64,000 nucleotides of DNA, from the IMG/VR virus record IMGVR_UViG_3300047552_001097, positions 1 to 64,000 of that record; one strand, given 5' to 3'. The position numbers and the translations under genes are program-made. Below the pieces are notes generated by a model. The model made no database searches. It was not told where the DNA came from and worked only from the letters and a program-made list of their open reading frames with translations. The stretch comes from a virus. Of the stretch, positions 4,083 through 34,001 are shown piece by piece. Positions within the stretch are counted from its first letter, which is position 1, and each line of letters opens with the position of its first letter.

Positions 4083-4127
4083 TTATACCTTTTATGTTAT
4101 ATTAATTAGATAAATATAGAGAATGAT

Positions 4128-6363: not shown

Positions 6364-9300
6364 ATCCTCATACTCAGAGTTATCTATAGTAAGTTCAACT
6401 ACAGAGTTGTTAGAGACCATAGCAAAGAGACCCTCTGGTACAGAGAATTCATTAGATATATAATCCCCTTCAAATATAGACTCACTAACTCTAACCATCT
6501 CCTCCCATTGAATAAACCCACCATCCTCACTATAGATATCTGGGTCATTAGTATCCTGCTCTGTACTATAAGCCTCTGATATAAGTTGCTCATCTATAGC
6601 CTCAATAGCTCTTTCTATAATAGTAAACTCTGATTGGTTATCTGTTATAGGTTGCATCATACTACCAGCTATACCTGCACCTACCATACCAAATAGTCCT
6701 GAGAGTACAGCACTAGTTATACTCTGAGCAGCTATCCTTTTACCGCCCATAGCATCATAATCTAGAGCTCCTTTATTACTATTAAATAGATATCTTAGTT
6801 TCTCATTAGAGGAAAGTTGACTAAGTTTAGCTTCTCTATACATCTGAGCTTTATATGAGCTTAGATGAGATAGAGACATCATAGAGTTAATAGCACTCTT
6901 CTCTACAAATGGAGCTACTACAGAAGCACCTAGAGTAAAACCTATTTCTCTAGCTGCTGCTAACCCTATAGCCTCACCTAAATCTCCATCTGTTTCACTA
7001 AGAGCCATATTAAGTTTAAAGGAGCCTCCTATCATAGACTTAGTTAACATAGCTTTAGGGTCTATACTAGTTCCCTTCTTACCGTAGGCTATAGAAAAGA
7101 TAGTACCCCCCACTATATTACCTATAGCGTCTGGGTTGATAGTCCCATTAATAACAGCACTACCTATAGTGGTTAGAGCTAGAGGTAATGCTAGTTCCAT
7201 AAAGTTATTAATGTTATTAAACTGTACTGCCTGGGATAGATTATTAAAATTAGGGGTAAGGGACTGGGCGTAAGCATTAGAACTACCTGTATCTACCTTG
7301 GTTCTAAGACTGGCTAGTTTATGCTGTCTATACTCTGATGTGGCTTTATTATATTGTCTCTCTATCTGTTCTATCTCTGTTATAGAGAGACCATGATTCT
7401 CTCCTAATAGAGCTTTAATAAAACTCTCTCCCTCTACATAAGAATCTATCTCCTCTTTTTTTCCATACATCTTAGTAAGGAACTCGTTAAGAGCCCTCCC
7501 TTTTGCCATAGAGGCAGTGGTCTCTAACTTATTTGATAGATACTTCTCTAGAGTGGTATTAATAGTATTACCATTTTCATCCTTATACTCCATACTAGAA
7601 CCAGACTCAATGGCATTAAATAGAGCTAGTCTAGATTGAAAGTCTTTCTTAGCTTCTTCCTCTGGCATGTTAGCTAGTTTGTATGCAAATGTATCAACTA
7701 TTTTTCCATTCTCCTTTTTAATACCAGTCATAAGGAGAGGGATATTTCCTTTAAAGTTAGTCTTTAAAAATTCATTAGAGGCAAAGGTATCCCATACAGC
7801 AGGTATAGCATGAGAGCTTAGTTTATTACTTCCAGCTAAATTAAGCATGGTATCCCATATATCAGCTCCTAGTAGTTCAGTATTAGAAGAGTTACCTCCC
7901 ATTAGGCTAATAGTTTTTTGTCTAGCTCCTTCCATATCTGTAAATCTACTTAACCCCTCTCCATATTTACCCATCATCTTATCGGTAAATTCTGTAGTAG
8001 TATTAATAATCTCTAACATACTAAGAACCTCTCTAGCTCCTCCTTTATTTGTATCTAGGTTTAAGTAATTAGATTTAATATCCTCTTCATTTTTATTAAA
8101 GATTCTAGATAGGATATGAAGGTTTCTAGAACCCTCTGCTGTATCTGAATTAAATCTTTTATTAATGAAATCTTGTATATCTTCTCCATTTACCTGGTCT
8201 CTATCCTTACCTAACTCCCTACTTATTATCCCTATATAACCAGAGAAGATGGTGTCTAAGAAGCTACTTTGTTCCCCTTTATCATATCCACTTGCTCCTG
8301 TAGTTATGTTATATCTATAGGCTATAACTAAGGATTCAAGGTCTCTCTTTACCTTTAAAGCTCCAATATCAAAGGCTGATATCTCCTCTTTATTACCAAA
8401 TGTATTAAGTTCTTGTACTAATCTTTCATATTGGGTGTTATCAATACTAAGGTCTGAGGCTAGAATCTGCTCATTCTTAGTAGAAGTAGCCCCTCCCCAG
8501 AAGGATGAAACTATTACCCCATTCATTAATTTAACTCTTCCATCCTCACTTAAGGTCTCTCTATTTCTCACTAAAGAGCCTAGTTGCATAAATACATCCA
8601 TACCAACATTAGAGCCAGAGGGACCGAACTTACCTGCTTCTCTAGTGATAAGAGCTCTTTGTTTATCTGGATTATCACTTAGGGACTCATATTCACTAGA
8701 TAGTCTCTCCATATTAGCTATGAAATCACCTCCAGCTTTAGGTTTAATTCCATCTCTTAATAGTTGGTTTATGCTTTTTATAAAGGCTAGGATTCCCTCT
8801 CCTGTATCACTATTTCTCTTAATAGAGGATACAAAGTCCTCTTCTTTTATCCCTTGAGAATTATAGAAATCATTATCTCTAAGGAACTGTTTAGTAGATT
8901 CCTCTTGAATAATAGAGGATAGAGCTAGTAAAGGACTCTCTTGATATAAAGTTCCTACAAAGGTGTTATAGGTTTTACCTAGTACATCACCCCCAGCTTT
9001 ACCCATAATCTTAACCATCATGTCATAACCAGTAAGAGACATATTAACCCCTGCCCCCTGTCCTAATATAGATTGAAGACTACTTACACTCTTTAATCTA
9101 GCTGCATATAAACCACTAGCCCTAGCTAATATCTCCTCCTCTTGTTCCTTAGATATAGAAGTAGAGTTAGGGGCAATAGATTGTATAGATTTGTACATAA
9201 GATCTAATAAATCCTTCTGAGCCTCCTCTCCCATAAGTAATATACCTAGATAAGTATTTCTATTAGCATTAGTCTCATCTTGGGCTAATACCTTTAATCT

Positions 9301-12300
9301 ATCTTGTAATAAATGAAACCCAGAATGGGCATTAGATACAGAAGCTAGATAGCTAAATAAAGACATATTAGGACCATTATTACCAGTAGTAGGTATACCT
9401 GTTTGTTGCTTAGATAAAACAGTAGTCTCTGTATTTATAAAGACATCCTTAAGGATGCTATTCACTTTCTTAATAGAAGAGCCCGTACCCCCTAATCCCC
9501 CAAATAGACCTCTACCCTGTTCTATAAAAGTAAGAGCTACATTCATACTTATATCATTCTGTTGAAAACCTTCTGGTCCTCCTAAGAAATGTTCTACTCT
9601 TATACCTAGGTAGTTAGCCACCTCTTTCTTAACAGCTTTACTAAAAGAGGAACTTTCTAATTGATTTCTCCAGGTGTATAACTTAGCCTTATTATTAGCT
9701 ATCCTTACTTTATGTTCCTCTATCTCACTCTTAAGGATATGAACCCTAGTCTTTTCTTCTTTTATACCTTCTTCTAAAGCCAATCTATCTTCATATGAGG
9801 ATAAGGGACCTAGACCCCCTACTTTATTATCAATGCTAGTATCTAGAGCCCTTATTCTAGCCTCTGTAGTCTTAATCATAATACTGTCACTCTCTATAGA
9901 CCTTTGTAGGTCCATAAACTGACTAAAGATAGTAGTATAGGGGTCCCCATCAAAGTCCCCTATATTCATAGTTAAAAGGGATATGGGGGATAGTAGAGAT
10001 AATCCTTTATTCCTTTCCTCATCGTATTGAACCATAGAATCCTGTCCTATAGCTTGATTAAGTAGAGATATATCTTGTATAACAGTAAGAGCCATTCTTT
10101 GTTGTTCACTACCTCCAATGGGGGGACTTCTAAATCCTAAGACTTCAATACTATCTCTCATGTCTAGATGGTTCATCATTTTTTCCATTAGAGCTATAGA
10201 GTTAGATAAAAGACTTTCATTAAGAGTTAGTTTATATTTATTTACTACTTGTCCTTTAACTACTCTAGACTCTGTAACAGCTAGCTTAGGGTTTATATTT
10301 AATAAAGAATATATATTTATATCTGGGTCAATAGATTTAAATATCCTTTCTAGAGCTTTAAGGGATGTGTCATTAATAGATTGGGTCTTAACTATCTTTC
10401 TAAGTATGGCTAGCCCACTAGATAAATCATCTAGTCCCTGTTTATTCTTATTAAGCATATCTATTTGAGATTCTGAGTTCTTAAAGGTATCTCTAGCCCT
10501 TCTACTAAACTCTTGACTTACTGAACTAGAGCTCTTAATATACTCTCCTAGAGCTGTCTCTATAACTATAGCCTTCTCCTTAATATCAGATATACCCCCT
10601 AGGTATTTATGCTCATCAAAGGAGAAACTTTTAGTTTTTTTATAAGTACCTTCTAAAGATTCAATAGTTTGAAGTAATCCAGGTTTATCTTTAGTACCCT
10701 CCAAATGTTGATAAATAGAACTATATTCCTCTTTAAATCTTTGATTCGATTGAGGTATAATATTCTCGAATCTATATTGAATATAAGCCAATTTCATTTT
10801 TATTGGCTCATAGGTAATATTTTCATTGGCCTCTATATATTTTTGATGTTCTTCTATAGCATTACCTTCTTTATCTTTTCCAAACCATTTAGGAACTTTA
10901 ATACTATCTATATCCTTATATAGAGTTTCTAGTTCACCCTCAGATAGAGATGGGTTCTCTAGTTTAAGTTGAGATATAACTAGTTCTTGTTTTCTCTTTT
11001 TAAGTTCATCTAATTGATTTTTAGTATCAGCTTGATAGGTAGTAAATATATTTCTTATAGCTTCTTTAAACAGCTTAATTTCTTTACCTATATTAAGAAC
11101 TTTATCCTTTAGACTTCTATGTTGAGAAATTATAGAACTCCTTTGTTCTAGTAGAGTAGTTTTTCTTACTTCTATTAGTTTATTAATAGAGAGGGTTATA
11201 GATTCTTCTAACTCTCTTAATTGATTAAGTTCAGAGTGATACTCTATAGAGTTTCCAGGATGAATTTGCTTTTTAAACTCTTGTATCTCACTTCTTATAT
11301 TGGCTCTATTAATCTCTAAAGATTCTATTAGTCTAGTAAACTCTCTTTTTTCAATAGATTTATCTATTCCTATATCTCTAAGAAATAAAGAAGCGGCTTT
11401 CTCTTCTCTTATAATTATTTCTTTATACTTGGATATAGACTTAGATAAACCCTGGATAGAGGATTTAGTATCTACTTCACCTAATCTACTTTGTATTTCT
11501 TTTATAGCTTTACCATTAATCTCATCATATTTAGATTTAAGTTCCTTTTCTCTAGACATTAGATAAGTAATAACAGGGGAGTACCTATCTAAACTAGATA
11601 ATCCTTCTATAGAATTTATCCTAGTAGATAAGTGTTCTATTTCTCCATCTAACTTTTTAATTTGAAGCTCTAATGGACTTTCATATTCACTAATCTCTTG
11701 AGTAAGAGCTAATTGCTTTCTTTCTAATTTAGCTTTATACTCTGTTAAATCAGCCCATTCACTATCGGCTATCTCTTCATAAGGAGCTATCTTTAAGAAA
11801 TAAAGTCTATTTTCTAATTCCCTCTCTTCTAATAAAAGTCTAGAAGAGTCTTGTTTATACTCTTTAACTTTGTATAAATGATTAAGTTTATTTTTTACTT
11901 CTGTATATTCTTTATCTATTTTGTTAATATATTCTGTACTATGAATTCCTAAGTGTATATTTCTCTTAATCTTAGATAAGATTTCTAATCTAGATTTATA
12001 ACTAGAAATATCTTCTTCTAGAATTCTATAGCCATTGGAACTTGGATTTAAACCCATCCAAGGAGGAGTTTCCAAAGCACTTCTATCATATATTTTTATA
12101 CTACTTTTAATTTTATTTATATATTTTAATCTACTTTCAATTTCTCTAGAGTATTGGTATATAAGTCTTTTAGTAGTACCTAGCCAAGTTTCTCCTTCTA
12201 ATTCACTTATAGTTCTATTAACATATTTATGTTCTTCTTCAAGTTCTTGTTGTATAGATTCTAGTTTCTTTATATCTCTTTCTCTAATTTCCTCGTCCCT

Positions 12301-15300
12301 TTTTTTAGCTTCTGGTGAGGATAGAAACTCTATAGTAGCATTTCTATATTTCATTTCGAGTTCACTTAATTCTAGTTGTTTACTCTCTAAGGAATTATAT
12401 CTACTACCATAATCATCTAGATAAACACTCTTAGAAGTAGAGTCTATACTCTGTTGAATACTAGTTCTAGCTCTATTTAATCTATTTAACTCATTCTCTA
12501 AATCACTTATAGAGTTATTACTATACTCATTTCTACTTTTATCTAGTTCTTTCCTTAATACTATAGAGGTAGAATCACTAGGTTTAATGTCTGGAAATAA
12601 TTCTCTACCTACTAAACTATTCTGTTCTAGAGTTATATTGGCTCTCTTTATATATAGTTCTTGTTCTACTTTTCTAATTCTATCTTCTATTTGTTGTAGA
12701 TTATTACCATGAATTAGTAAATCTTCATTATTAGGTCTAACCATTATAGTTCCACTTTTACCCTCTTCTTTAGCCTTTTGTATCTGTTCTATAAGGTTTA
12801 TTTGTTCTTCTCTTAATTTAATTAATCTATTCTTATCATCTCTAATAGAATTTAACTCCTCACTTATTCCAATTAAGGAGGAGATTCTATCTCTTTCTAG
12901 TTCTAATATCTTAACCTTACTCTTTATATAACCATCTTCTAAATCAATATCCTTAGAGTTCTTTATTAAATCTAGTTCATATTCCAATTTAGATAAGTTA
13001 TCTCTAGTGGGTCTCATCCCCTTAACCTTACTTTCTTGTAGCTTTAATCTATAGATAATACTATCTGAACTATCGATTTCTTCTATAGTTCTTTCTATAT
13101 AATGAATCTCTTTATTAACATCTGATAGGTTACTACTATATATTCCTCTAATAAAAGAGGCTATTCTCTTAACTGTTTTATTATCTGGAACTATCTTACT
13201 TAATGATTTACCTTCTTCTACTATCTTAGTTAATCTAGTTCTTTCACTATTTAATTCTTTAATCCTTTCATTAATAAGGGTTTTATCTATACCCTCACTA
13301 GCTCTTTTAAGACTTAATAGCTCTAATCTCTGTTTATTTAAACTCTCAACTTGGCTTTCTATATCAACTAAATAGCTATTTAGATAATCCAAACTACTAG
13401 ATATATCAAAGCTACCACTCTTTTCTAGAGCCTTAAAACTATTTAATATACTAGATAACTCCTCTCTTTTATTTATTAAAGAAGGGAGACTGTTTATTTG
13501 ATTAATCTTTCTAGATAATGAATCTGGGTCATTACCACTAGAATTAATTCTTTGTAATTCATTTAAATCTCTTAACTCCCTATTTATCTCTCTAAAGGTA
13601 GGAGCATATGCTTCAATATGGCTCTGAACTCTCTTATAATATTCACTGAACAATACAGATACTGGTATAGAATCCACCCCAGTAGCTACTTGTAAAACCC
13701 TTCTTATATTACCTAGTTCCAATTGATTAGCTTTACTTAATCTCTCTTTAAATATAGAACTAGCCTCATTTACTAGTTTTAATACTTCTTCTGGGAGATT
13801 ATAATAAAGGTCTTCTTGTATAGATGGAAATATGGAATAATCAACTAGATTACTTTGAAATATAGAGAAGAATATATTTAAATCCATACCTGCTGGACCA
13901 CTAACTCTATTATTAATGTCTAGAGTCATCTTATATAAGAACTCGGAAGGGATATTATATCTGTATTCATTATTTAAGAAAGGCTTAGTTGTCTTCTCAT
14001 AAACTATACCTTTATTCGTCTTAATCCTATTTATTTCATCTTCTAATACCTCTAGTTCTATAAGAAAGATTCCCTCTTTATATACTTTAGAACCCTCACT
14101 TAATCTTTTCCATTTATTGAATTTAGTCTTATCTCTTTTATATGCCTTATTTTCCTCTATATCTCCTTCCACTAATCCGCTTCTTTTTATCCTTTCAGCC
14201 TCTAGTTTAGCTAGTTCTACAGCTAAAGAATCTCCCTGATTCTTACCTATTTGTATATTAGATAGGAGTTCAAGTCTAGATAAAAGGCTATTAGCCTGTC
14301 TATTAAGGGGTTCTATAACAGCAGTATCTTCTTGGTTTATACTCCCTAACTTACCAATAAGAGAGTCCACTTCTTTCTTTATAGTTAGAACTTCATCAAT
14401 ATACGACATACCTAAAGGAGAAAGTCCCCCTCTAACTGCTAATAAAGCTGCTCTAATAACATTCTGTTCCTTATAAGAGCTACTAGAATTACCTATATTC
14501 TCTAGTAAACTAACTAATTCATAACGTTCAGGACTAGCACTAGTATATCTATTAAGAGCCTCTTTAGCTAATAGAATACTACCATTAGGTATTAACCAAG
14601 AAGCTGCTGATGAGGTTACAGCTCCACTATGTCTAGTTTTAAATCCAATAGCAGCTTGAGCTCTAGTACCAGCACTAGCCTCTGCCATAAGATTAACTAT
14701 ACCCTGGTCTCCAAAAGCATAGGAGTAGAACTTCTTAAGTAGTATAAGTTCTTCTTTATCTAGTTCAATAACACCTGTACCTTCTTCCTTAGCTCTAACA
14801 ATCTTATCTCTAACATTAGACATAGCAGTACCAGGAGCAAAGGCACTAGCTAGAAATATGGTTCTACTTACTATCTCATCAATATAAGAACCATAGGCAT
14901 CACCTAATCCTTTAAGTTCAGCTCCACTCATAAGATAACTATAATACTTCTGACTATAGTCCAGCTCTAGTCTTACCTTACCCCCTATGTCATTACTACT
15001 ATCCTCTGACATATATATCTGAGGAAGACTAAAGGCAAAGCTCTTATAGTTTAACTGGTCTAGTATAGGGGATACAGAACCAGCTCCAAAGGGTTTATCA
15101 CTATGTAATTGATAGTACCTACTTATATCTAATAACCTTCTAGAACTTATATTATCTAATAAAGTAAGAGCCCCAGTTATATCAAATCCAGACCCCATCT
15201 TATCTTTCATATCTACAATAATCCCTCTTATAGCCTCATTCTCTGATGGGTTATAGGTCATTAATTGATTAATCTTTTCTATGGTATCTATCCTACTCTC

Positions 15301-18300
15301 AGGTGTAAGGTTATTACTATCTAGCTCCTTTATTAATATATTAACTACATTATTTACTAGAGCTCCATATGACTCATAGTCCTTCTTATATTGATTTAAA
15401 TAGGCTGTAGTCCTAGCATCTACCCCAGCATATATACCTAAGAACTTACTCTTATGTAATTGAGAACCTAGTCTTATATCTGATATGTCATATACTTTTT
15501 TATCTATCCAATCTCTATCCCTTATATCCCCACTTACACTATGTAAAGTTGCACTATCTGATACAACAGATAACATATTAGCAACTATAGTTCTTAATGA
15601 GGATATAGACCCTTGTTCTTGGAAGGATGAACTTACTTGCATAAGGGGTTTAAGTAAGTGCTGATATTCCAGAGCTCCTGTAGACTTAGAACCTATAGAC
15701 TCCTTACTCTCAGAGGCTAGTAGGTCTGTGAATAATCTTATAACTGTAGATTGAGTAGTAAATCCTCTTACCATAGCTCTAACAGCATTAAGATAATCTA
15801 AAGATTCCTTCTCCTCTTTATCTAAAGATGTTAATGACCTTTTCTCTAATAGAGAACCCCTCTCTAGTTTATTAAGGTCCACATCCCCCATAATAGAAGC
15901 TATTTGTTTAATAATTTCATTGTTATTAAAATCTATTTCTGTAGGTATGGTTATGCCATCATTATCATATTTAGATAGTTGGGCTATAAGGTCTAGGGAA
16001 CCAGCTAGTATAGAAGCCTCTCTTTCAAAGGGGTTATCTATTCTAATAAACTCTCTACCCACTAGACCTTTACCTTCTCCTAGATCTGATACTAGTTTTC
16101 TCTCTAACCATGAAGTGATATAATTAATACCCTCTTGTTCCCCTTTAGCTGCTTTAAGTAACATCTGAGAATCTAGTAGAGCTAAGGAAGGTGTCTGTTG
16201 AGTATTAAACAATCCCTTTGTCTTAGATACTAGAGCATTACCAAACATAGAACCAAACTTAGTTCTTATATCTTGGTACTTGTGGTAATTAGGGTCACTA
16301 TCATTGAATATGGCATTTATAGCAGTATCAAAGTCCCCTAATCCAGTAATAGCTCCTACTAATTCAGAGGACCCGTTTAAATGACTAATAACAGTTCCTA
16401 GAGCCTGATTCCTAAAGAAGGAACCCATTTCCCCTTTAATACTAGATTCAAATAGAATCGTATTAATATCCTTCTTTACATCAGAATCCATCCACTCATT
16501 ACCAAAGGCTAGGGCTAAGGATAGTAATAGTTTATTCCCTTTCTTATTAGATATAGTATTAGGATTAAACTCACTTATAAGAGAACGTAATAGCTGTTCG
16601 TTTCTTACTATATGGGAACCATGAGAATAGAAATGACTCTTTAAGTTAGTGGGGTTAAAAAGACCAAATATAGAGCCCACATCTACTTTTGTATATCCAT
16701 CCTGAGTCTTATTGAATTGGGCAGCTAGATAGGAGAAGAAGTCCATGTTTTGATATCTACTATCTTTAATATCCAGGAAGTCAGTGGATGTGAATTTAAG
16801 TACAGCCTTAGCTAGAGTACCAATACCCTCAACTCTTCTACCCCCCTCTAGAATAAAGGAGCGGTTATATACCATTTCCCATATAAGCTGGTTATTATCA
16901 GCATTACCTGTTAATTGTTTAGAGCTTACTAGATATTCTATAGAGTTAGCTGCATTCCTATGCCAAGTCTGTCTATCTAATCTAGAGACATTAGGTAAAT
17001 CATCTATAGTTCTAAAGTTATCTATTACTCCATTAAGGAATGCCACCTGGTCCCTAGAGTCTACCATTGATTTAAGGACATAATGTCCAGACTCTCTATC
17101 TAAAGAATAATACTTATTAAACTCTGTACCTAATACTGCTTGTTTAAGAGTAGATAAAACATCCTTTGATTGATTAATAAGCTCAATAGATTGTTTAACT
17201 CCACTAGTTGTTTCACTTATTAACTCACTAGAGTTACCCCATACTAGAACTCTATTAGTATCAGTATCAAAGGTTATGATATCTCCTTTACGGGCTAGTA
17301 GTTTACCATTAGAGACCCAATCCTCTGATAGTTTAGAGGACTTCTGTTTCTTCTCTGCTTTCTCTATAAAGCCACTCATAGTTCTAATCTTAGACATAAC
17401 CTCCACTCTTTCATTTAGAGGTATGTTCTTATAGCCTTTATATTGTTTTATTAAAGAATGTAACTCTTTAATGTCATCATTACTTCCACCATATAGGGGG
17501 TTGGCATAGGCATAATCACTAAAGTCTCCAGTTAGTTGAACTAATATAACTGGATTAAGTCCTTCTGTTGTACCAGTAAACCCCTTGGTTCCAGAGGCTA
17601 AACTATCAGCACTTCTCGCTCTATATAACAACATAAAGCGAGCTAATGAAATGTCCCCTCTTCTATATTCAAAGTCTTCTTCTTTAAATCCAAAGTCTTC
17701 TTTTAACTCTTCTTTAGCTTGTTCTACTATAGATGCTAACTCACTGGTCATAACCCCTCTAAATCCACTAGCATTTATAATTCCAATACTTAAGTCCTCA
17801 CCTAAGTAACTCTCAGCTTTAAGATATAGATGATTTAGTTTATGTAATATAGTTTGTTTAGATTGATTATTTAATCCTTTTGTTCTATCTATAGCTATTT
17901 CTATTAGTCTATTAAAGGAGTAAAGTCCTATATTATCTTCTTGAACTACTATTTTCAGATTATCCAGGACCTTCTTTGTATTAGTATCTATACCAGAATT
18001 TGTAGTGTTAAGTCTATTAAATAGGGTTTCTACTACTTGAACTTTAATATTTAGACTTCTCTTTTCTATAATATTATTAACATTACCCTTTGTTAAAAGG
18101 GCATAGGATATTTCTTTATCTATTTCATACATACCCCTAGTTCCTAGTTTATTCTTCATTCTTTGGGGTACTTGACTAACTTTCTTAGCAACATTATAAG
18201 TATAAGTAACTATTTCATCACTATATTTAAAGCCACTTCCATCAATAATTCTTTCATATTTACTATCAATCTTTTGGATAAGACTAGATTCAAAGGTACT

Positions 18301-21300
18301 TTTACCCCCCTTTCTTCTATTTCTATATTCATTTAATCTATTAACCATAGCTTCTATACTATGAATCTCTTCATTATATAGAGCTACTTTATACTCATTA
18401 TAGATAGATTCAAAGATATATCTATCAAACTCATCTCTTTTAGTTACATATCCGACCCCACCATATTTAGCAAACTCTACTAAAGCTATATCTCCTATAG
18501 GAGTTTTCTTAATTCCATGTATAGATAAACCCCCTTCTTCTATACTTTCACTTATAGAACCACCTTCTGCTACACCTCTAATAGCTCCTTCTGTACCCTT
18601 ACCAGTAGTATCTGAAGGACCAAATATATAAGGTTGGGCTATAGCAAATCTAAATATATTGCTTATACCATCCCCTCTTTTCTTTAAATTACTAAGGAAA
18701 ACTCTTTGAGACCTATTAATTCCATATAAAGGAGTTTTGAATTCAGCCTGGTTATCTGTATAAGTAGATACCTGTTTCTGTGTAATAAAGGGTTCTAGTA
18801 GTCCAGCTTTAACTAACTTAATGGCATTAATAAAGCTATCATCGTACATAAATTCCCTTCTACTCTCTATAATTCCAAGAGCAATGTCTGATTGAAATGT
18901 ATGTATATCCCCTATTCCCATACTTAAATCGAACCCTTCTCTTATACTTTCTATAACAGCTTCCTTACTAAAGAGTAGTTGTCTCTTATTAGATTCAGAT
19001 AAATTACTATCTTTAAGAGCTCTATTAATAGTTCTAATAGCTTGTAATCCTTTAATAACCCTAGTTCTTATATCTAAGTCATTAGAGTTATCTACTAATT
19101 GATATGACATAAGGGAAGAACTCTTAAGCTGAGAGACTATATCCTCTCCCCCTCTAAGGTTTAAAGAGGCTTTAAATGAGCCACTAATACCTATTCCATG
19201 TCTCTGTTCAAACTTTGTTATTAAATTAGTTATCTCTATATCTGATAGGGAACTAGACCTTAAGAAGTCTCCAGCTATGCCATTATATCTAGATACTCTC
19301 CCATAAGTTAAATACTCTAGATAATCTAACCCAGCTTTACCTAACATACTATTACCCTGAACATTCTCCTTTTTACTTAGAGACCTCATATAATGCAAAG
19401 GTTGAGTTATTAAAGCTCTATAAGTCATCTCCCCAGCTAAAGAAGATATAACGTTAGAAAATGTTTCTATAGGTGTTAGTAATAAACTCTCCCTGCTCTT
19501 TAATGGTTTATATTGAAGACTATAAGAACCATCATCTCTCCTAGTAAAGGAATCTTTACCATAAGGAAGATTTATAGTCTCTTCTTGATTATTAATAAAT
19601 AGACTTTTACCTACTAGCTTATTCTGGTCTATAAGATATATAAACCCACTTTTATTATTTAATCCCCCTTTTAAAGCTGTAACTCTAAAGGAGGAATTAT
19701 TATATGTAACCCCAGCTTTATGTCCACTTATTAATGAACCTGCATTAATATCTACCTGTATACTTATTAGTTCTCCATGTTGACCATAAGATTTCTTTAT
19801 AGATATACCTTCCCCTTTACCTAGTCCCATTTCTTTATTAAGGGCTTCTAGTCTAGCTATAAGAGTGTTAAGAGAAGCTCTATCCACTTTATTAGTCCAT
19901 GAGGCTTTACTAGAGGATAGAGAACTATCTACATTACCTACTTTAGTTCTAGTTAATCTAAACCACTCTCTTTCTAGGTGTTGACCCTCTGAGGCTTTAA
20001 AGTCCTCCATCTCCTCTGACATACTATCTTTACTTCTATATAGAGTCCCCTCTCTTTCACCATATCTCCTCATATCTCTAGCTAGATTAATAATACCCAC
20101 TTCCCCACTAGTAGTATCATCCCCTACATCAAAGGCTAAGGAGGAACTACCAAAGTTAGATGAACCTTGTATAGCTCCTATATGTTTAAAGGAATCATCC
20201 TCCCCTCTATACCTTTGTATGGCAAATATATTCTTTACATGACTCATAGTCTCTGTAACCTCTATAATATTCCCACTAGTTATAGCTAGTATCTGAAGGG
20301 CTGTTCTATAACTAGACTCACTACTTACCTTATTATAGAATCTGGATAATTTATCTCTAGGGTCAATGAATTTATCTATAGATACTCCATAGTTAACTCC
20401 CCCTTTATCTAATCCTAAAAGATTAATAAGGGCTTTAGAGTCTCTATTTACTGCATTAGTAAGAGTTCTTAGAGAACTACTGTATCTATCTTCAAATACC
20501 TTAGAACCTAATCTAACAGTAGATTCATAATCTAGGGAGGTGTTCTCCATTCTACCTAGGAGATAACTAACTTTCTCTATAGTAGGTTCTAGAACTTTAT
20601 CTCTATAGTTTCTAATATCAACAGAGACATAGGCTCTTCCCTTATTAACTAGCTCAAAGAACTTATATTGAATCTCACTTCTATAGATAGAGTCTCGGTT
20701 ATTACCTTTATTCCTTATTAAGAATGTTTCTATAGGTATAGTTCTAGATTTACCAGAGGGACCAAACTCTCCACTATAATCCCCTTTCTTACCATAATAG
20801 ATATCATCATCTAGTTGAAGGAGCCATACCTGGTTAAGGTTAGCGTATAGTTCTATAGGTTTATCATATGTAGATTTACTAGAAGCATATTTAATCATAG
20901 TCCTAAGTCCCTGTCCTATATCCCCGGCATTACCTATTTGATTACCAGTAACAGCTCTTCTAGTTTTAATCTCATTAAGAGCTATCATCCTAGCTTGGAG
21001 GTATAGATGTGTATCTATATACTCCTGTTTCTTCTCCTTTGTCATAGAACTAGAGAAGGAGCTTCTTATATCTAAAGCTGTTCTTTTAACTCCATCCATA
21101 TCTGGAATATAGTAGCTAGATGAATTAGGATTTATTCTATCTAGTCTATTATGAAGAATGATTACTTCTTCATAGTTAGACCCTGCTACTGAAGGACTAT
21201 TACCTACTGGAGAAGTTAAGTTAAAGGAGCCTAACATAGCAAACTTCTCAGTAGTATATAACTTAGGGTGATAGCTGCCACTATCTATAAACTCTAGGTT

Positions 21301-22473
21301 CATATTAGGTAGATAGTTAGCTATAGTGTTATTTATATTACCTGGTGATGTAAGAGTCTCTACATCATTAACTCCTAGGGATATAAGTTTCTCTTTAACA
21401 ATATCCTTTTGAACTCTATAAATCCTTTCCATAATAATAATATTAGGGCCAAGGATTTGATGACCCACCATATTAGCATTACTTCCATTAGAGGGGGCAG
21501 CTAGTCTAATACTAAACTTAAAGTCTCCAGAGGCTATTCTACTAGATTCCCTCTGTAGTTTAGATACTAGTACATCAGATATAGTCTTATTCTGAAGTTG
21601 AAATAGGTCTATAGTTAGTTCTTTATCGGCACTTTCTATAAAAGCAATAGCCATTCTCACACCGGGTTTATATACATAATCACTCTTATCTAGTAACCTA
21701 GTGGAGAAATCTTTGACATAAGAAGTAGATGTAGTAAACCCATAATCCATCCTTTTTAATAGAATCTCTGGATCTGTTCTTATTAATTCATCATGTATCT
21801 TGTTAACTCTATTAGTAACTTGATACTCTTCTCCAGTTAATAAGTGATTTAAAACCCATCTTCCCTTAGCCATTCCATCTAAATCATTAATATTAGGATT
21901 CTCTTTTAGTATCTTAAGACCCCCATATATGTTCTTATTAACTTCATTACTAACTACTTCAGTAGTGTCATGGTCAAATAAATATCTATATGCAACACTG
22001 GAAGTATACCTTTCATACTCTATTCGGCGCTTATCCTTTTCCTTCTCAGATAGAGTTGACTCAAAGAAACCATCATTTAATCCAATATTAAACTCTCCAG
22101 TTATACGATTAATGGCCTTTATCCCACTAGTTGATAGGTTGTATAAATCACTTGAAAAGGCAGAGAATGCGTTTCTAGCTAGAGCTCTAGCTGCTTCTTC
22201 ATATACATCTACCTTATCCTGTAGAATATCCTGTTTAACAACTTGTTTTATATAATCCCTTCTTTGAACCTCTTCCTTCTCTGTGTAATAACCCCTATAG
22301 TTCTTACTAGAACTTACTCCAAAATCCTGATTATATTTATCATCATATTGTTCATTAAAAAGGAAATGGGTATTAATAGTATCTTTTAAATGGTCTCTTA
22401 TTCCTTTCTCATAGAAAGAACCACTTAATATTCTATTATCTGTAGGGTTATTACTCCAATTAGGATAGTGCAT
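6355..22473 (-). CDS. Giant 5,372-aa protein: PLD-like enzyme, coiled coil, candidate single-chain RNA polymerase
   Basis: One uninterrupted frame covers a quarter of the window. Residues about 265-800 carry two phospholipase D/nuclease half-sites: HPK at 402-404 with GSFN at 415-418 and later acidic residues, then HVK at 745-747 with GSSN at 770-773. Residues about 2960-4020 are almost continuous coiled coil rich in E, K, L, I and S. At 4173-4177 lies DFDGD in the context NIGDFDGDPY, preceded by GFRSPPIGG. This resembles the catalytic loop and upstream R-x-P element of RNA polymerase beta-prime/YonO/crAss-like enzymes. A possible beta-like basic element, GFKTRHSG, is at 2610-2617. Hydrophobic stretches occur near 5090-5130, 5170-5190 and 5250-5275. 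I infer a virion protein ejected into the host. A tape measure is the alternative, because the tail assembly chaperone gene is next door. Existence of the gene is certain; the polymerase role is moderately supported. Confidence 0.93.
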   Translation of the reverse strand: MHYPNWSNNPTDNRILSGSFYEKGIRDHLKDTINTHFLFNEQYDDKYNQDFGVSSSKNYRGYYTEKEEVQRRDYIKQVVKQDILQDKVDVYEEAARALARNAFSAFSSDLYNLSTSGIKAINRITGEFNIGLNDGFFESTLSEKEKDKRRIEYERYTSSVAYRYLFDHDTTEVVSNEVNKNIYGGLKILKENPNINDLDGMAKGRWVLNHLLTGEEYQVTNRVNKIHDELIRTDPEILLKRMDYGFTTSTSYVKDFSTRLLDKSDYVYKPGVRMAIAFIESADKELTIDLFQLQNKTISDVLVSKLQRESSRIASGDFKFSIRLAAPSNGSNANMVGHQILGPNIIIMERIYRVQKDIVKEKLISLGVNDVETLTSPGNINNTIANYLPNMNLEFIDSGSYHPKLYTTEKFAMLGSFNLTSPVGNSPSVAGSNYEEVIILHNRLDRINPNSSSYYIPDMDGVKRTALDIRSSFSSSMTKEKKQEYIDTHLYLQARMIALNEIKTRRAVTGNQIGNAGDIGQGLRTMIKYASSKSTYDKPIELYANLNQVWLLQLDDDIYYGKKGDYSGEFGPSGKSRTIPIETFLIRNKGNNRDSIYRSEIQYKFFELVNKGRAYVSVDIRNYRDKVLEPTIEKVSYLLGRMENTSLDYESTVRLGSKVFEDRYSSSLRTLTNAVNRDSKALINLLGLDKGGVNYGVSIDKFIDPRDKLSRFYNKVSSESSYRTALQILAITSGNIIEVTETMSHVKNIFAIQRYRGEDDSFKHIGAIQGSSNFGSSSLAFDVGDDTTSGEVGIINLARDMRRYGEREGTLYRSKDSMSEEMEDFKASEGQHLEREWFRLTRTKVGNVDSSLSSSKASWTNKVDRASLNTLIARLEALNKEMGLGKGEGISIKKSYGQHGELISIQVDINAGSLISGHKAGVTYNNSSFRVTALKGGLNNKSGFIYLIDQNKLVGKSLFINNQEETINLPYGKDSFTRRDDGSYSLQYKPLKSRESLLLTPIETFSNVISSLAGEMTYRALITQPLHYMRSLSKKENVQGNSMLGKAGLDYLEYLTYGRVSRYNGIAGDFLRSSSLSDIEITNLITKFEQRHGIGISGSFKASLNLRGGEDIVSQLKSSSLMSYQLVDNSNDLDIRTRVIKGLQAIRTINRALKDSNLSESNKRQLLFSKEAVIESIREGFDLSMGIGDIHTFQSDIALGIIESRREFMYDDSFINAIKLVKAGLLEPFITQKQVSTYTDNQAEFKTPLYGINRSQRVFLSNLKKRGDGISNIFRFAIAQPYIFGPSDTTGKGTEGAIRGVAEGGSISESIEEGGLSIHGIKKTPIGDIALVEFAKYGGVGYVTKRDEFDRYIFESIYNEYKVALYNEEIHSIEAMVNRLNEYRNRRKGGKSTFESSLIQKIDSKYERIIDGSGFKYSDEIVTYTYNVAKKVSQVPQRMKNKLGTRGMYEIDKEISYALLTKGNVNNIIEKRSLNIKVQVVETLFNRLNTTNSGIDTNTKKVLDNLKIVVQEDNIGLYSFNRLIEIAIDRTKGLNNQSKQTILHKLNHLYLKAESYLGEDLSIGIINASGFRGVMTSELASIVEQAKEELKEDFGFKEEDFEYRRGDISLARFMLLYRARSADSLASGTKGFTGTTEGLNPVILVQLTGDFSDYAYANPLYGGSNDDIKELHSLIKQYKGYKNIPLNERVEVMSKIRTMSGFIEKAEKKQKSSKLSEDWVSNGKLLARKGDIITFDTDTNRVLVWGNSSELISETTSGVKQSIELINQSKDVLSTLKQAVLGTEFNKYYSLDRESGHYVLKSMVDSRDQVAFLNGVIDNFRTIDDLPNVSRLDRQTWHRNAANSIEYLVSSKQLTGNADNNQLIWEMVYNRSFILEGGRRVEGIGTLAKAVLKFTSTDFLDIKDSRYQNMDFFSYLAAQFNKTQDGYTKVDVGSIFGLFNPTNLKSHFYSHGSHIVRNEQLLRSLISEFNPNTISNKKGNKLLLSLALAFGNEWMDSDVKKDINTILFESSIKGEMGSFFRNQALGTVISHLNGSSELVGAITGLGDFDTAINAIFNDSDPNYHKYQDIRTKFGSMFGNALVSKTKGLFNTQQTPSLALLDSQMLLKAAKGEQEGINYITSWLERKLVSDLGEGKGLVGREFIRIDNPFEREASILAGSLDLIAQLSKYDNDGITIPTEIDFNNNEIIKQIASIMGDVDLNKLERGSLLEKRSLTSLDKEEKESLDYLNAVRAMVRGFTTQSTVIRLFTDLLASESKESIGSKSTGALEYQHLLKPLMQVSSSFQEQGSISSLRTIVANMLSVVSDSATLHSVSGDIRDRDWIDKKVYDISDIRLGSQLHKSKFLGIYAGVDARTTAYLNQYKKDYESYGALVNNVVNILIKELDSNNLTPESRIDTIEKINQLMTYNPSENEAIRGIIVDMKDKMGSGFDITGALTLLDNISSRRLLDISRYYQLHSDKPFGAGSVSPILDQLNYKSFAFSLPQIYMSEDSSNDIGGKVRLELDYSQKYYSYLMSGAELKGLGDAYGSYIDEIVSRTIFLASAFAPGTAMSNVRDKIVRAKEEGTGVIELDKEELILLKKFYSYAFGDQGIVNLMAEASAGTRAQAAIGFKTRHSGAVTSSAASWLIPNGSILLAKEALNRYTSASPERYELVSLLENIGNSSSSYKEQNVIRAALLAVRGGLSPLGMSYIDEVLTIKKEVDSLIGKLGSINQEDTAVIEPLNRQANSLLSRLELLSNIQIGKNQGDSLAVELAKLEAERIKRSGLVEGDIEENKAYKRDKTKFNKWKRLSEGSKVYKEGIFLIELEVLEDEINRIKTNKGIVYEKTTKPFLNNEYRYNIPSEFLYKMTLDINNRVSGPAGMDLNIFFSIFQSNLVDYSIFPSIQEDLYYNLPEEVLKLVNEASSIFKERLSKANQLELGNIRRVLQVATGVDSIPVSVLFSEYYKRVQSHIEAYAPTFREINRELRDLNELQRINSSGNDPDSLSRKINQINSLPSLINKREELSSILNSFKALEKSGSFDISSSLDYLNSYLVDIESQVESLNKQRLELLSLKRASEGIDKTLINERIKELNSERTRLTKIVEEGKSLSKIVPDNKTVKRIASFIRGIYSSNLSDVNKEIHYIERTIEEIDSSDSIIYRLKLQESKVKGMRPTRDNLSKLEYELDLIKNSKDIDLEDGYIKSKVKILELERDRISSLIGISEELNSIRDDKNRLIKLREEQINLIEQIQKAKEEGKSGTIMVRPNNEDLLIHGNNLQQIEDRIRKVEQELYIKRANITLEQNSLVGRELFPDIKPSDSTSIVLRKELDKSRNEYSNNSISDLENELNRLNRARTSIQQSIDSTSKSVYLDDYGSRYNSLESKQLELSELEMKYRNATIEFLSSPEAKKRDEEIRERDIKKLESIQQELEEEHKYVNRTISELEGETWLGTTKRLIYQYSREIESRLKYINKIKSSIKIYDRSALETPPWMGLNPSSNGYRILEEDISSYKSRLEILSKIKRNIHLGIHSTEYINKIDKEYTEVKNKLNHLYKVKEYKQDSSRLLLEERELENRLYFLKIAPYEEIADSEWADLTEYKAKLERKQLALTQEISEYESPLELQIKKLDGEIEHLSTRINSIEGLSSLDRYSPVITYLMSREKELKSKYDEINGKAIKEIQSRLGEVDTKSSIQGLSKSISKYKEIIIREEKAASLFLRDIGIDKSIEKREFTRLIESLEINRANIRSEIQEFKKQIHPGNSIEYHSELNQLRELEESITLSINKLIEVRKTTLLEQRSSIISQHRSLKDKVLNIGKEIKLFKEAIRNIFTTYQADTKNQLDELKKRKQELVISQLKLENPSLSEGELETLYKDIDSIKVPKWFGKDKEGNAIEEHQKYIEANENITYEPIKMKLAYIQYRFENIIPQSNQRFKEEYSSIYQHLEGTKDKPGLLQTIESLEGTYKKTKSFSFDEHKYLGGISDIKEKAIVIETALGEYIKSSSSVSQEFSRRARDTFKNSESQIDMLNKNKQGLDDLSSGLAILRKIVKTQSINDTSLKALERIFKSIDPDINIYSLLNINPKLAVTESRVVKGQVVNKYKLTLNESLLSNSIALMEKMMNHLDMRDSIEVLGFRSPPIGGSEQQRMALTVIQDISLLNQAIGQDSMVQYDEERNKGLSLLSPISLLTMNIGDFDGDPYTTIFSQFMDLQRSIESDSIMIKTTEARIRALDTSIDNKVGGLGPLSSYEDRLALEEGIKEEKTRVHILKSEIEEHKVRIANNKAKLYTWRNQLESSSFSKAVKKEVANYLGIRVEHFLGGPEGFQQNDISMNVALTFIEQGRGLFGGLGGTGSSIKKVNSILKDVFINTETTVLSKQQTGIPTTGNNGPNMSLFSYLASVSNAHSGFHLLQDRLKVLAQDETNANRNTYLGILLMGEEAQKDLLDLMYKSIQSIAPNSTSISKEQEEEILARASGLYAARLKSVSSLQSILGQGAGVNMSLTGYDMMVKIMGKAGGDVLGKTYNTFVGTLYQESPLLALSSIIQEESTKQFLRDNDFYNSQGIKEEDFVSSIKRNSDTGEGILAFIKSINQLLRDGIKPKAGGDFIANMERLSSEYESLSDNPDKQRALITREAGKFGPSGSNVGMDVFMQLGSLVRNRETLSEDGRVKLMNGVIVSSFWGGATSTKNEQILASDLSIDNTQYERLVQELNTFGNKEEISAFDIGALKVKRDLESLVIAYRYNITTGASGYDKGEQSSFLDTIFSGYIGIISRELGKDRDQVNGEDIQDFINKRFNSDTAEGSRNLHILSRIFNKNEEDIKSNYLNLDTNKGGAREVLSMLEIINTTTEFTDKMMGKYGEGLSRFTDMEGARQKTISLMGGNSSNTELLGADIWDTMLNLAGSNKLSSHAIPAVWDTFASNEFLKTNFKGNIPLLMTGIKKENGKIVDTFAYKLANMPEEEAKKDFQSRLALFNAIESGSSMEYKDENGNTINTTLEKYLSNKLETTASMAKGRALNEFLTKMYGKKEEIDSYVEGESFIKALLGENHGLSITEIEQIERQYNKATSEYRQHKLASLRTKVDTGSSNAYAQSLTPNFNNLSQAVQFNNINNFMELALPLALTTIGSAVINGTINPDAIGNIVGGTIFSIAYGKKGTSIDPKAMLTKSMIGGSFKLNMALSETDGDLGEAIGLAAAREIGFTLGASVVAPFVEKSAINSMMSLSHLSSYKAQMYREAKLSQLSSNEKLRYLFNSNKGALDYDAMGGKRIAAQSITSAVLSGLFGMVGAGIAGSMMQPITDNQSEFTIIERAIEAIDEQLISEAYSTEQDTNDPDIYSEDGGFIQWEEMVRVSESIFEGDYISNEFSVPEGLFAMVSNNSVVELTIDNSEYEDLV

Positions 22474-23702: not shown

Positions 23703-25079
23703 ATGGATAGAACTCCAGTAGAGAATAAGACAACACAACTAGAGAGTAGCCCTCCTAGTATAGATTTAATCCCTTCTTATAAAAGGAAACCCCCAGTAAT
23801 AAGACAGATGGGTAGAACCACTTCTTATATCTCTACTGGAGATGACCTCTTTACCTCTTGTGTTAGACCTAGTATCCAACAACTATCCTTATGGGATTCA
23901 GCTAGAAGGAAAGAACCTATTCTATTTGATGGGTTACAAAAGATGGTAGGAGCTGTTAGAGCTAAGTATGCTGGATGTAGTCATCCAGACCCTATTATTA
24001 ATACTTTTGTTAATAGAGTTCTAGAGAATAGAATACTTGAATGGGTAGGCTCTATAACTAATACTATGCTATGGAGTGGGTTCTGTGTAGGAGAGATAGT
24101 CCATGAATATAAGACTGGTATTAATGGGGAGAAGCAGGTATGGATAAAGGACTTTTTTACTTACCACCCTATAGAGCCTAGATTTATATTAAATAAACAG
24201 GGACTTCTTACTCATGGCGAGTTAATGGAAGAAAGTTCTTTATCTACAGGTATATGGGTTCCAGCTCCGGAGTATTTATCATCTAAAAGAGCTATAAATC
24301 ATTCTTTTACAGGTAGTCATGTTAGATTACCTAAGACTAAAGTTTTTCATATAGCTTTTAATTCAGAAGGTAATAATCCTTATGGAATGTCTCAATTAGA
24401 AGCTGCTACTAAATATCATATATATAAAGAAACCTTCTTAGAGATGGAGGCAGCCGCTCTTGATAGATATGGGACTCCCCTTATTTACTGTACTGTACCC
24501 TTACAAAAGACTAAGGAATCAGTGCAAGAGCCTGATGGTTCTATAAGGGACCTTTATTACCATGAAGTAATAAGTAATCATCTAGCTGATTTGAGGTCAC
24601 AGCAGACCATAGTTTTATCTTATGCTGATAAAGATAACCCACCTAAGTTAGAGGCTCTTACTACAGGTAATAACTTTAGTGATACGTTTAATATGGGTAT
24701 AGAACTCTGTGATAGTAATATGATGATAGCTCTAGGTATACCTAATCTAATACTAAAAGATAATAATCAGGGGTTAGGGACTGGTGGTGCAGCAGAGAGA
24801 CAAATGGAGGCATTCCATTTATTTATTACAGATATATTTAATACAGTAACTAATAAGATAATAGAACAGGTTATTACTCCTTTAATTCTATGGAACTTTG
24901 ATATAGATAAGCATCCATTAGCTACTCAACCTGTTACCTTTCTATCTAAACCTATTAGATGGTCAGAGAATCAGGTTCTGGTTAATGTTATTAAAACACT
25001 AACAGAACTTAATTATATAAACCCAGAGGACCCTAAACATAAGGCTTGGGTACTAGATATGTTTAATATACCTAAATAA
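23703..25079 (+). CDS. Portal protein
   Basis: At 458 aa with the pattern of Mu gp29/DUF935-like portals: GNNPYGMSQLEAA (near 232-244) followed by a long helix YHIYKETFLEMEAAALDRYG and PLIYCTVPL, then a helical crown region with an NNQGLGTGG loop. Portals form the dodecameric ring at one capsid vertex through which DNA is packaged and ejected. The position before protease, scaffold and capsid genes supports the call. The start has the AAATATGG context. No terminase gene lies upstream in this window. Confidence 0.85.
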   Translation: MDRTPVENKTTQLESSPPSIDLIPSYKRKPPVIRQMGRTTSYISTGDDLFTSCVRPSIQQLSLWDSARRKEPILFDGLQKMVGAVRAKYAGCSHPDPIINTFVNRVLENRILEWVGSITNTMLWSGFCVGEIVHEYKTGINGEKQVWIKDFFTYHPIEPRFILNKQGLLTHGELMEESSLSTGIWVPAPEYLSSKRAINHSFTGSHVRLPKTKVFHIAFNSEGNNPYGMSQLEAATKYHIYKETFLEMEAAALDRYGTPLIYCTVPLQKTKESVQEPDGSIRDLYYHEVISNHLADLRSQQTIVLSYADKDNPPKLEALTTGNNFSDTFNMGIELCDSNMMIALGIPNLILKDNNQGLGTGGAAERQMEAFHLFITDIFNTVTNKIIEQVITPLILWNFDIDKHPLATQPVTFLSKPIRWSENQVLVNVIKTLTELNYINPEDPKHKAWVLDMFNIPK

Positions 25080-27953: not shown

Positions 27954-29219
27954 ATGCCAGTTCCAAATAATACAAACTTTTCACCCTGGGCCTCTCCTCT
28001 TAGTCCTATTAGACCGGACTTAATTCCTTCTGAACCTATTTATACAGAAGTAGCTAGAAGTTTTATTCCTAATGTTGGTCAATCCCCCCTAACTGAATTA
28101 TTCCCTATTGAGGAAATTCTAGAACGTACTGTTATTATCAACCAATACTTTGAAGCTGCCTATTCTATTTGGCCACTTGTTGATTGGGGTAAGCCTGATG
28201 TTGTAACAGGTTTTAATAAAGGGGCTATGCAAACAAGAAGCTATCAACCCCTTGTTATTCGTAATACTAAGGCTCTCTCATATGGAGAGATGAATATTCG
28301 TCTTCGTAGTGGTACTAATGAAAGATGGAGACCAGAAGAACAAATTGTTAGTGTTATTGAAGGTATGGTAAGAGAACATAACCTAACATGGGATGTATAT
28401 CGTACTATGATGCTTCAAGGTGGTATTGACCATAGTGATAGTCAAACAGGCTCTTCCGCTAGAGTACCTGCTGAAATCCCTCTTCATAACATCTGGAATT
28501 GGTCTGTATCATCTGGTTATAAGGGTAGAGCTGATTCCTCTGTATTTCTAGATATTACAGATAACAACTCAGTACAACCTACTTCTCAAGGTACTCCTTG
28601 GACCCACCCTAATGCTGATGTCTTAGGTACTATACAAAAGATTAGTAGTTATTTCTCTACTACTAATAAGAGTATGCCTACTGATATCTATATGTCTAGA
28701 GAACTAGCTCATATCCTAGCTGGTAATAACCAGGTTAAGATGGCTAGAGGAGCTACTGTATTTGGTTTACCAGGTGGAGCAGTTTCTAGAGATACTCCAG
28801 ACCCAGACTTATCTAGAATGTTTAGTATGGATAATATGGGTCTATCATCTATTAATGGTCTTCCTGTTAAGATTATTGATACTATCTATAGAGACCAAGC
28901 TACTGGTTTAATGCGCTCTGCATGGCCTAAGAATAAGGTAGTAATTGCATCTAGAGTAGCTCCAGATGGTTCTCCTGAAGCTCCAGGTAGAACTCAGTTC
29001 TGTATATCTGAACAAGCAGGTACTTCCTCTGGTCTATGGGTAAGAACTATTGATAACTCTGTACCCCCAGCAGCCCCTGCTATGATGATTCAAATGGGTA
29101 ATGCTGGTCTTCCATATCTTAAATACCCCTATAGAGTTGTTCATATGACAGTATCTAGTGTGGCTGATGTTAATGCTAGATTAGGTGCTGTAGGGGACCT
29201 AAGTTTTGGTGTTGTATAA
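27954..29219 (+). CDS. Major capsid protein (HK97-fold)
   Basis: This 421-aa protein follows the protease-scaffold gene and has capsid features: an N-terminal arm, ELFPIEEILERTVIINQYFEA, a long spine-like helix region (EEQIVSVIEGMVREHNLTWD), and YMSRELAHILAGN with a beta-rich C-terminal A-domain (VAPDGSPEAPGRTQF). Codon use is unlike its neighbours, with many CGT arginines and C-ending codons, which fits a very highly expressed gene. It begins in an AATAAATATG context and ends just before a long hairpin terminator. Confidence 0.85.
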   Translation: MPVPNNTNFSPWASPLSPIRPDLIPSEPIYTEVARSFIPNVGQSPLTELFPIEEILERTVIINQYFEAAYSIWPLVDWGKPDVVTGFNKGAMQTRSYQPLVIRNTKALSYGEMNIRLRSGTNERWRPEEQIVSVIEGMVREHNLTWDVYRTMMLQGGIDHSDSQTGSSARVPAEIPLHNIWNWSVSSGYKGRADSSVFLDITDNNSVQPTSQGTPWTHPNADVLGTIQKISSYFSTTNKSMPTDIYMSRELAHILAGNNQVKMARGATVFGLPGGAVSRDTPDPDLSRMFSMDNMGLSSINGLPVKIIDTIYRDQATGLMRSAWPKNKVVIASRVAPDGSPEAPGRTQFCISEQAGTSSGLWVRTIDNSVPPAAPAMMIQMGNAGLPYLKYPYRVVHMTVSSVADVNARLGAVGDLSFGVV

Positions 29220-33251: not shown

Positions 33252-33982
33252 ATTCTTATCCAATAACTACAGCAGTACCTTCCTTACCTTTCTTATGTAG
33301 ATATATATTCAGACTATTATCTACACATCCCCTAATAATAAATCCACCTATATATCACCCTGTAACAGGAGAAAGAGTTTATATAAAGGGATATAAGTTA
33401 TTTAATGGTATAGAGACTAATCTAGGTTTATATTGTTCTATATTTCCTCACTCTACTCCTACTGATGGTATAAGTCTACCTAAACCAGCAGATACATCTA
33501 CTTCTGTTCTATTTGAGCCCCAAGGTAATGGGTATGATTTAGCAGTATACCATATAGCTCTTAAACTTCACTATAATTTTTCTATATTAGGTAATAAGGA
33601 GACTAATAATGACCTTATAGCTGTACCCTTAGATGCTGCTATACACCCATCTCAGACTCCATATGCTAGAGAGGGGTCTAGAGAGTTAGAACTATACTAC
33701 AGTCCAAGTCTATACATTATTGGTGAGTATTTAGAGTTAATACGATTAGCTATTTTAGATAAAGAACATACATTTTCTATGCCATCTGTTTTTAGAACAT
33801 CAGATATACCAAGAAATATACAGGTTCTTTATTTTAATTTAAAGACTCCACCTTGGGAGAAGGATAAGGCTTTATATTTCCATGAAGGAGAAATACTTAT
33901 TCGTATTGATTCAATCCTATCTAAAGAATGGAAGAGTCAATTTGAAGTTCCCACTGCTTCCTTCCAAGTCTCCGTTTTATAA
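33245..33982 (+). CDS. Tail terminator/neck candidate, 245 aa
   Basis: This beta-rich protein lies immediately before the sheath gene, where contractile phages usually encode the tail terminator (gp15-like) or a neck protein. Features are YHIALKLHYNFSI (a likely strand pair near 105-117), PSLYIIGEYLELIRLAI and a C-terminal SILSKEWKSQFEVPTASFQV. No family is recognised with confidence. Coupled to the upstream gene by overlap. Confidence 0.55.
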   Translation: MLDSYPITTAVPSLPFLCRYIFRLLSTHPLIINPPIYHPVTGERVYIKGYKLFNGIETNLGLYCSIFPHSTPTDGISLPKPADTSTSVLFEPQGNGYDLAVYHIALKLHYNFSILGNKETNNDLIAVPLDAAIHPSQTPYAREGSRELELYYSPSLYIIGEYLELIRLAILDKEHTFSMPSVFRTSDIPRNIQVLYFNLKTPPWEKDKALYFHEGEILIRIDSILSKEWKSQFEVPTASFQVSVL

Positions 33983-34001
33983 TCTTTATTTAATATTATT
34001 T

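What the first reader, a model, noticed from the sequence alone, without database searches (positions are those of the whole stretch)
20120..21700. Complete two-half PLD/HKD enzyme at the N-terminus of the giant protein
HPK 402-404 with GSFN 415-418, and HVK 745-747 with GSSN 770-773, each with following acidic residues, form both halves of a phospholipase D/nuclease active site. An ejected PLD enzyme could act on host DNA or membrane phospholipids at the moment of entry.
Basis: seen in the sequence. Interest (0 to 1): 0.8.

Follow-up and report, generated by a model that had tools for sequence, protein, structure and literature searches.

The report
Phospholipase-D-type enzyme on giant phage protein
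A very large protein of a cyanophage-like virus carries near its front end a complete enzyme domain of the phospholipase D type, kept intact in all of its distant relatives, but what it cuts and whether it is injected into the host are not yet known.

Summary
Observation confirmed. The minus-strand giant ORF (6355-22473, 5372 aa) has HPK402-404/GSFN415-418 and HVK745-747/GSSN770-773 exactly as stated, with invariant downstream acids E435 and E791. It is a distant homologue of Microcystis phage Ma-LMM01 gp080 (phrog_31006). In 14 aligned homologues both HxK pairs, both Asn and both Glu are invariant. AlphaFold2 on a compact homologue (L032) gives pLDDT 84.6 and pTM 0.86. That model superposes along its whole length on two-HKD PLD enzymes (Z 13-18.5, about 250-297 residues, 3.5-4.9 Å), so both halves form one PLD fold.

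No virion or ejection evidence exists here; adjacency to the portal/capsid module is only supportive. Substrate is undetermined: GSxN-T motifs favour a nuclease, but lipases, PssA, PLD3/4 exonucleases and PPK1 fit almost equally well. Massive host-DNA destruction sits badly with the published Ma-LMM01 transcriptome (0.17% of host genes changed).

UniProt already labels the Ma-LMM01 homologue PLD-containing. Also seen: an RNA-polymerase-like RxPxxG...DFDGD signature in the same protein, and a second, unrelated giant PLD-bearing protein in the same genome.

The parts
6355..22473 (-). Giant ORF, 5372 aa, homologue of Ma-LMM01 gp080 / phrog_31006
20029..21690 (-). Complete two-HKD PLD-superfamily domain, aa about 262-815
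21220..21270 (-). HKD half 1: H402-P-K404-x4-E409-x5-G415-S-F-N418
21169..21171 (-). E435, invariant acidic residue after HKD half 1
20155..20241 (-). HKD half 2: H745-V-K747 ... G770-S-S-N773
20101..20103 (-). E791, invariant acidic residue after HKD half 2
21442..21456 (-). Family-specific I340-L-G-P-N344 motif before HKD half 1 (I, L, G, N invariant in 14)
10366..14376 (-). aa about 2700-4036: Glu/Lys/Arg/Gln-rich, Gly/Pro-poor, probably coiled-coil insertion, nearly absent from the Ma-LMM01 homologue
10114..10131 (-). R4115-S-P-P-I-G4120, first part of an RNA-polymerase-like signature
9943..9957 (-). D4173-F-D-G-D4177, invariant in 7 homologues, RNA-polymerase-like metal-binding motif (hypothesis)
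7138..7194 (-). Hydrophobic segment aa 5094-5112 near the C-terminus
6655..6723 (-). Hydrophobic segment aa 5251-5273 near the C-terminus
23703..25079 (+). Portal protein (context), divergent neighbour of the giant gene
27954..29219 (+). Major head protein (context)
33882..36983 (+). Contractile tail sheath (context)

Best explanation
Residues about 262-815 of the giant protein form one complete, catalytically competent PLD-superfamily phosphodiesterase. Two HxK...GSxN halves fold into a bilobed pseudo-dimer with a single active site. One histidine forms the covalent phosphohistidine intermediate, the other acts as general acid, and the lysines, asparagines and acidic residues hold the phosphate and orient the histidines. 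The domain is the N-terminal enzymatic module of a giant, probably virion-carried protein encoded next to the capsid/portal module and delivered into the host with the DNA. There it most likely hydrolyses nucleic-acid phosphodiesters (a limited or specific nuclease or end-processing activity rather than wholesale host-DNA destruction). Shown: motifs, invariance, homology, predicted fold of a homologue (PLD enzyme domain alone: about 0.9). Inferred: activity (from invariance), virion delivery (from gene position and protein size), nucleic-acid substrate (from the GSxN-T motif type; about 55:30 over phospholipid). The confidence given is for the PLD enzyme on a virion-delivered protein, substrate left open.
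For: Motifs exact. All catalytic-type residues invariant in 14 homologues at 27-53% identity to the window. Pfam PLDc_2 in 9 of 14 members, best 4.3e-8. AF2 of homologue L032 with 14 sequences: pLDDT 84.6, pTM 0.86. Foldseek PDB: the 50 matches listed (E <= 0.001) are all PLD-superfamily entries, counting PPK1 and PssA. VIA: residues about 3-445 align in one piece to F13, PssA, PLD1, bacterial PLD, PLD3/4 and PPK1, Z 13-18.5. Even the weak model of the window's own domain has PLD3, Zucchini and NucT among its best matches. Gene lies beside the portal/head module in the window, Ma-LMM01, L012 and L019, and co-directional with it in L019 and the Microcoleus phage. GSxN followed by T is the Nuc/NucT-like form of the motif (own knowledge); weak sequence hits are to nuclease-type PLDs.
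Against: The window's own domain scores only E 0.01-0.03 to PLDc_2, below Pfam's cut-off, and its own AF2 model is poor (pLDDT 56), so the fold is transferred from a homologue at about 31% identity. The second half has a long, variable loop between HxK and GSxN. Nothing shows the protein in virions. Ma-LMM01 hardly changes host gene expression (PMC5780444), which speaks against gross nuclease action. Fold matches do not separate nuclease from lipase.
Confidence: 0.6

Rival explanations
1. Same PLD fold and chemistry, but the substrate is membrane phospholipid: the domain modifies or breaches the cytoplasmic or thylakoid membrane so that the genome or the rest of the giant protein can cross.
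For: The best fold matches include membrane-acting members: vaccinia F13, phosphatidylserine synthase, PLD1/2, Streptomyces PLD. The giant protein has C-terminal hydrophobic segments.
Against: GSxN-T motifs rather than the lipase-type GG (own knowledge). PLD3/PLD4 exonucleases and PPK1 fit almost equally well. No membrane-binding insertion was recognised in the PLD domain.
Confidence: 0.25
2. PLD fold kept for a structural or binding role, catalytically dead (as in FAM83-type proteins, own knowledge).
For: The second-half GSSN is shifted by a long loop, and one homologue (L041) has S in place of G in both GSxN motifs.
Against: Both H, both K, both N and both E are invariant in 14 diverged homologues; dead enzymes normally lose these.
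Confidence: 0.07
3. The giant protein is primarily a virion RNA polymerase of the two-barrel type, and the PLD domain is an accessory module for entry or for processing nucleic acid ends.
For: R..P.G...DFDGD signature at aa 4115-4177, invariant in 7 homologues, resembling the DPBB-A signature of phi14:2 gp66 (YRIPNQG...SDFDID) and P23-45 gp96 (FRNPVMG...VDFDGD) read. P23-45 gp96 was first spotted by DFDGD alone (PMC10770324).
Against: No match to RNA polymerases in Pfam, PHROGs, PDB sequences or hhalign. No conserved lysine pair found in the candidate upstream block. Ma-LMM01 early genes carry host sigma-70-like promoters (PMC5780444).
Confidence: 0.3
4. Chance occurrence of HxK and GSxN strings in a long protein.
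For: Such strings are short; 10% of shuffles have at least one.
Against: Two in 0.6% of whole-protein shuffles and 0 of 2000 for the first 900 aa; invariance and fold exclude it.
Confidence: 0.01

Closest known systems
Microcystis phage Ma-LMM01 gp080 (YP_851094.1; BFVD/UniProt A0A7J4, 'PLD phosphodiesterase domain-containing protein'; phrog_31006)
   Same: Homologous along N-terminal PLD, middle and DFDGD regions; same gene neighbourhood; both HxK/G[ST]xN halves present
   Different: 3562 instead of 5372 aa; lacks most of the aa 2700-4036 charged insertion; about 27-30% identity in the PLD region; annotated hypothetical in GenBank
Two-HKD PLD enzymes (bacterial PLD 7e0m, PLD1/2, PssA, PLD3/PLD4, vaccinia F13)
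   Same: Bilobed two-HKD fold in one chain, Z 13-18.5 over most of the domain; HxK, GSxN and acidic residues
   Different: 8-15% identity; family-specific QxQN, ILGPN and LNQVxLL motifs; part of a giant phage protein
Thermus phage P23-45 gp96 (tail-tape-fused virion RNA polymerase)
   Same: Giant (5002 aa) phage protein with a DFDGD motif
   Different: gp96 is a tape measure protein inside the tail cluster with RNA polymerase at the N-terminus; the paper mentions no phospholipase; here the RNA polymerase role is unproven

Membership tests
PLD superfamily (two-HKD class) | Two HxK(x)4D...GSxN motifs in one chain | tested here: met
   the D of half 1 is E409 in the window (D/E in all 14); half 2 has a longer, variable HxK-GSxN spacing
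PLD superfamily (two-HKD class) | Bilobed fold with both HKD halves in one site | tested here: met
   homologue L032 model pLDDT 84.6, whole-length superposition on two-HKD enzymes; the window's own model is too weak alone; histidine-histidine distance not measured directly
PLD superfamily (two-HKD class) | Profile match to PLDc_2 (PF13091) | tested here: inconclusive
   window 0.01-0.03, under the cut-off; 9 of 14 homologues match at E <= 0.01, best 4.3e-8
PLD superfamily (two-HKD class) | Phosphodiesterase/transferase activity through phosphohistidine | not testable with these tools
   needs purified protein
Ma-LMM01 gp080 family (phrog_31006) | Homology at N-terminal, middle and C-terminal blocks and location beside portal/head genes | tested here: met
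Two-barrel RNA polymerases (QDE-1 / crAss gp66 / P23-45 gp96) | DxDxD metal motif with upstream RxP-type motif in DPBB-A | tested here: met
   R4115...DFDGD4173-4177 invariant, compared by eye with gp66 and gp96
Two-barrel RNA polymerases (QDE-1 / crAss gp66 / P23-45 gp96) | Detectable homology or fold, second barrel with catalytic lysines | tested here: inconclusive
   no profile match; no conserved Lys pair recognised; fold not predicted
Virion-ejected proteins | Presence in the particle and transfer to the host | not testable with these tools
   no proteomics found; MaMV-DH01 authors state mass spectrometry is still needed (PMC9927357)

The most novel reading that the evidence does not exclude
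A family of giant (3.5-5.4 thousand residue) proteins of Ma-LMM01-like phages is a single-chain entry machine that combines a PLD phosphodiesterase, a divergent two-barrel virion RNA polymerase and a C-terminal membrane-active segment, delivered into (cyano)bacterial hosts. Phages described as lacking their own RNA polymerase would then in fact carry one in the particle.
Probability: 0.2. Interest if true: 0.85.

Novelty: new variant of a known kind. Interest (0 to 1): 0.52.

Why it matters
The domain gives a concrete, testable enzymatic activity to a giant protein that is conserved across Ma-LMM01-like phages yet annotated as hypothetical. If the protein is packaged, it would be a phage example of a PLD enzyme delivered at entry, and it points to a possible unrecognised RNA polymerase in phages reported to lack one.

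Tried and rejected
Single-sequence searches with the N-terminus: no PDB sequence match, Pfam only 0.032, one viral-contig scan empty. A profile of 7 homologues against PDB sequences gave only E >= 0.26. Foldseek with the low-confidence model of the window's own domain gave meaningless top hits. No relatives found in bacterial genome contigs. RNA polymerase homology of the DFDGD block by Pfam, PHROGs, PDB hmmsearch and hhalign: none. T7-type RNA polymerase in the own genome: no match, but the control genomes did not ring either, so uninformative. No held paper on gp080 or on an injected phage PLD. Chance explanation rejected.

Full report
What was checked. The window is the first 64 kb of a 171,917-base virus record. 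The giant ORF is on the minus strand at 6355-22473, 5372 aa. A pattern for an HKD half (H.K, 5-40 residues, G[ST].N) occurs only at these two places in the protein. At least two occurrences appear in 0.6% of whole-protein shuffles and in none of 2000 shuffles of the first 900 residues.

What it is. The nearest annotated relatives are gp080 of Microcystis phage Ma-LMM01 and the same gene in the MaMV phages (9 records). Ma-LMM01 gp080 is 3562 aa, annotated hypothetical, and lies beside the head and tail gene module. It is PHROG 31006. The homology runs in blocks through the giant protein: aa 260-1451, 1616-2704, 4036-4191 and 4466-4608. The Ma-LMM01 protein has little counterpart to a charged, Gly/Pro-poor stretch at about 2700-4036. 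Scans of viral contigs gave further relatives, among them L012, L013, L019, L020, L026, L029, L031, L032, L041, L042 and L044. A truncated relative in Microcoleus phage My-WqHQDG is nearly identical to L019 in the compared blocks; L019 has the PLD domain.

Conservation. In 14 aligned N-terminal domains the two histidines, two lysines, two asparagines and two downstream glutamates (E435, E791) are invariant, together with T420, N433, S771, S772 and S778; the HxKx4D position is D or E throughout. Two of the 14 rows (L009, L035) are near-identical Ma-LMM01-like sequences and two (L019, L042) are close to each other, so the effective number is smaller, about 11-12. Pfam PLDc_2 matches 9 of the 14 on their own, best 4.3e-8, although the window's own copy stays at 0.01-0.03.

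Fold. AlphaFold2 on the window domain with 7 sequences was weak (pLDDT 56), yet its best structural matches were PLD3, Zucchini and NucT (Z up to 6.5, low). With 14 sequences and the compact homologue L032 as target (31% identical to the window) the model is good: pLDDT 84.6, pTM 0.86. Foldseek lists PLD-superfamily chains (counting PssA and PPK1) for all 50 PDB matches with E <= 0.001. VIA-align superposes residues about 3-445 on vaccinia F13 (Z 18.5, 3.8 angstroms, 261 residues), E. coli PssA (18.3), PLD1 (17.8), a bacterial PLD (17.6), PLD4/PLD3 (16.4) and PPK1 (16.0). A whole-length match to bilobed enzymes at 3.5-4.9 angstroms over 251-297 residues means that the two halves sit in the PLD pseudo-dimer arrangement. 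The exact distance between the histidines was not measured, because coordinates are not exposed. In the viral library the best hit is the Ma-LMM01 protein, whose record is already named PLD phosphodiesterase domain-containing.

How it most likely works. By established PLD chemistry, one histidine attacks the phosphate to form phosphohistidine and the other protonates the leaving group; which is which is not known here. The substrate is inferred only. GSFN-LT and GSSN resemble nuclease-type HKD motifs (own knowledge), and the weak profile hits to solved structures are nuclease-type. Structural matches include lipases, a lipid synthase, exonucleases and a kinase with similar scores. The idea that it destroys host DNA on entry is weakened by the Ma-LMM01 transcriptome paper: almost no host genes (0.17%) change during infection (PMC5780444). 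A specific or limited nuclease, or end processing, is more compatible.

Delivery. No direct evidence. The gene sits next to portal and head genes in the window, Ma-LMM01, L012 and L019, divergent in some and co-directional in the L019/Microcoleus type. The protein has two hydrophobic segments near its C-terminus. This fits a virion-carried giant protein but does not prove it.

A second possible enzyme in the same protein. R4115-SPPIG and DFDGD4173-4177 are conserved in the family and resemble the DPBB-A signature of crAss-like phi14:2 gp66 and Thermus phage P23-45 gp96, whose sequences were read for comparison. P23-45 gp96 was itself recognised as a virion RNA polymerase from DFDGD in a giant protein without other detectable similarity (PMC10770324). 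Here no profile search supports it, no catalytic lysine pair was recognised, and Ma-LMM01 early genes have host-like promoters. It remains a lead.

Novelty. The fold and chemistry are known, and the Ma-LMM01 homologue is already tagged as PLD in a public record. What is new is the demonstration that this divergent subfamily is complete and invariant across diverse giant phage proteins, together with its architecture. I rate it a new variant of a known kind, of medium interest.

Noticed in passing
phage record G000:C1:82793-95962 (+), outside the window (L048/L049): A second giant ORF (4390 aa) with its own PLDc_2 match (86399-86794, 45.3 bits, over cut-off) and HxK motifs HIHSK (1115) and THAK (1290) followed by STGN and TSHN. 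No blastp similarity to the first giant protein's family; many hydrophobic Gly-rich stretches. The PLD part is shared with Microcoleus phage My-WqHQDG (42.5% identity); later parts match phrog_29513.
   Followed up: partly
window 9943-9957 and 10114-10131 (-): RNA-polymerase-like R..P.G...DFDGD signature, invariant in the gp080 family; a possible unrecognised virion RNA polymerase.
   Followed up: partly
window 10366-14376 (-): Long charged, Gly/Pro-poor (probably coiled-coil) insertion between two conserved blocks, largely absent from Ma-LMM01 gp080.
   Followed up: no
L004:1-150 (OR578706.1 start): The Microcoleus phage record begins inside its giant gene with imperfect 15-residue repeats (STDVSGSGSTVLPIV), perhaps an assembly artefact that hides its PLD half.
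   Followed up: no
window 43045-44265 (+): Tail-region gene with a C-terminal metallo-endopeptidase/endolysin domain.
   Followed up: no
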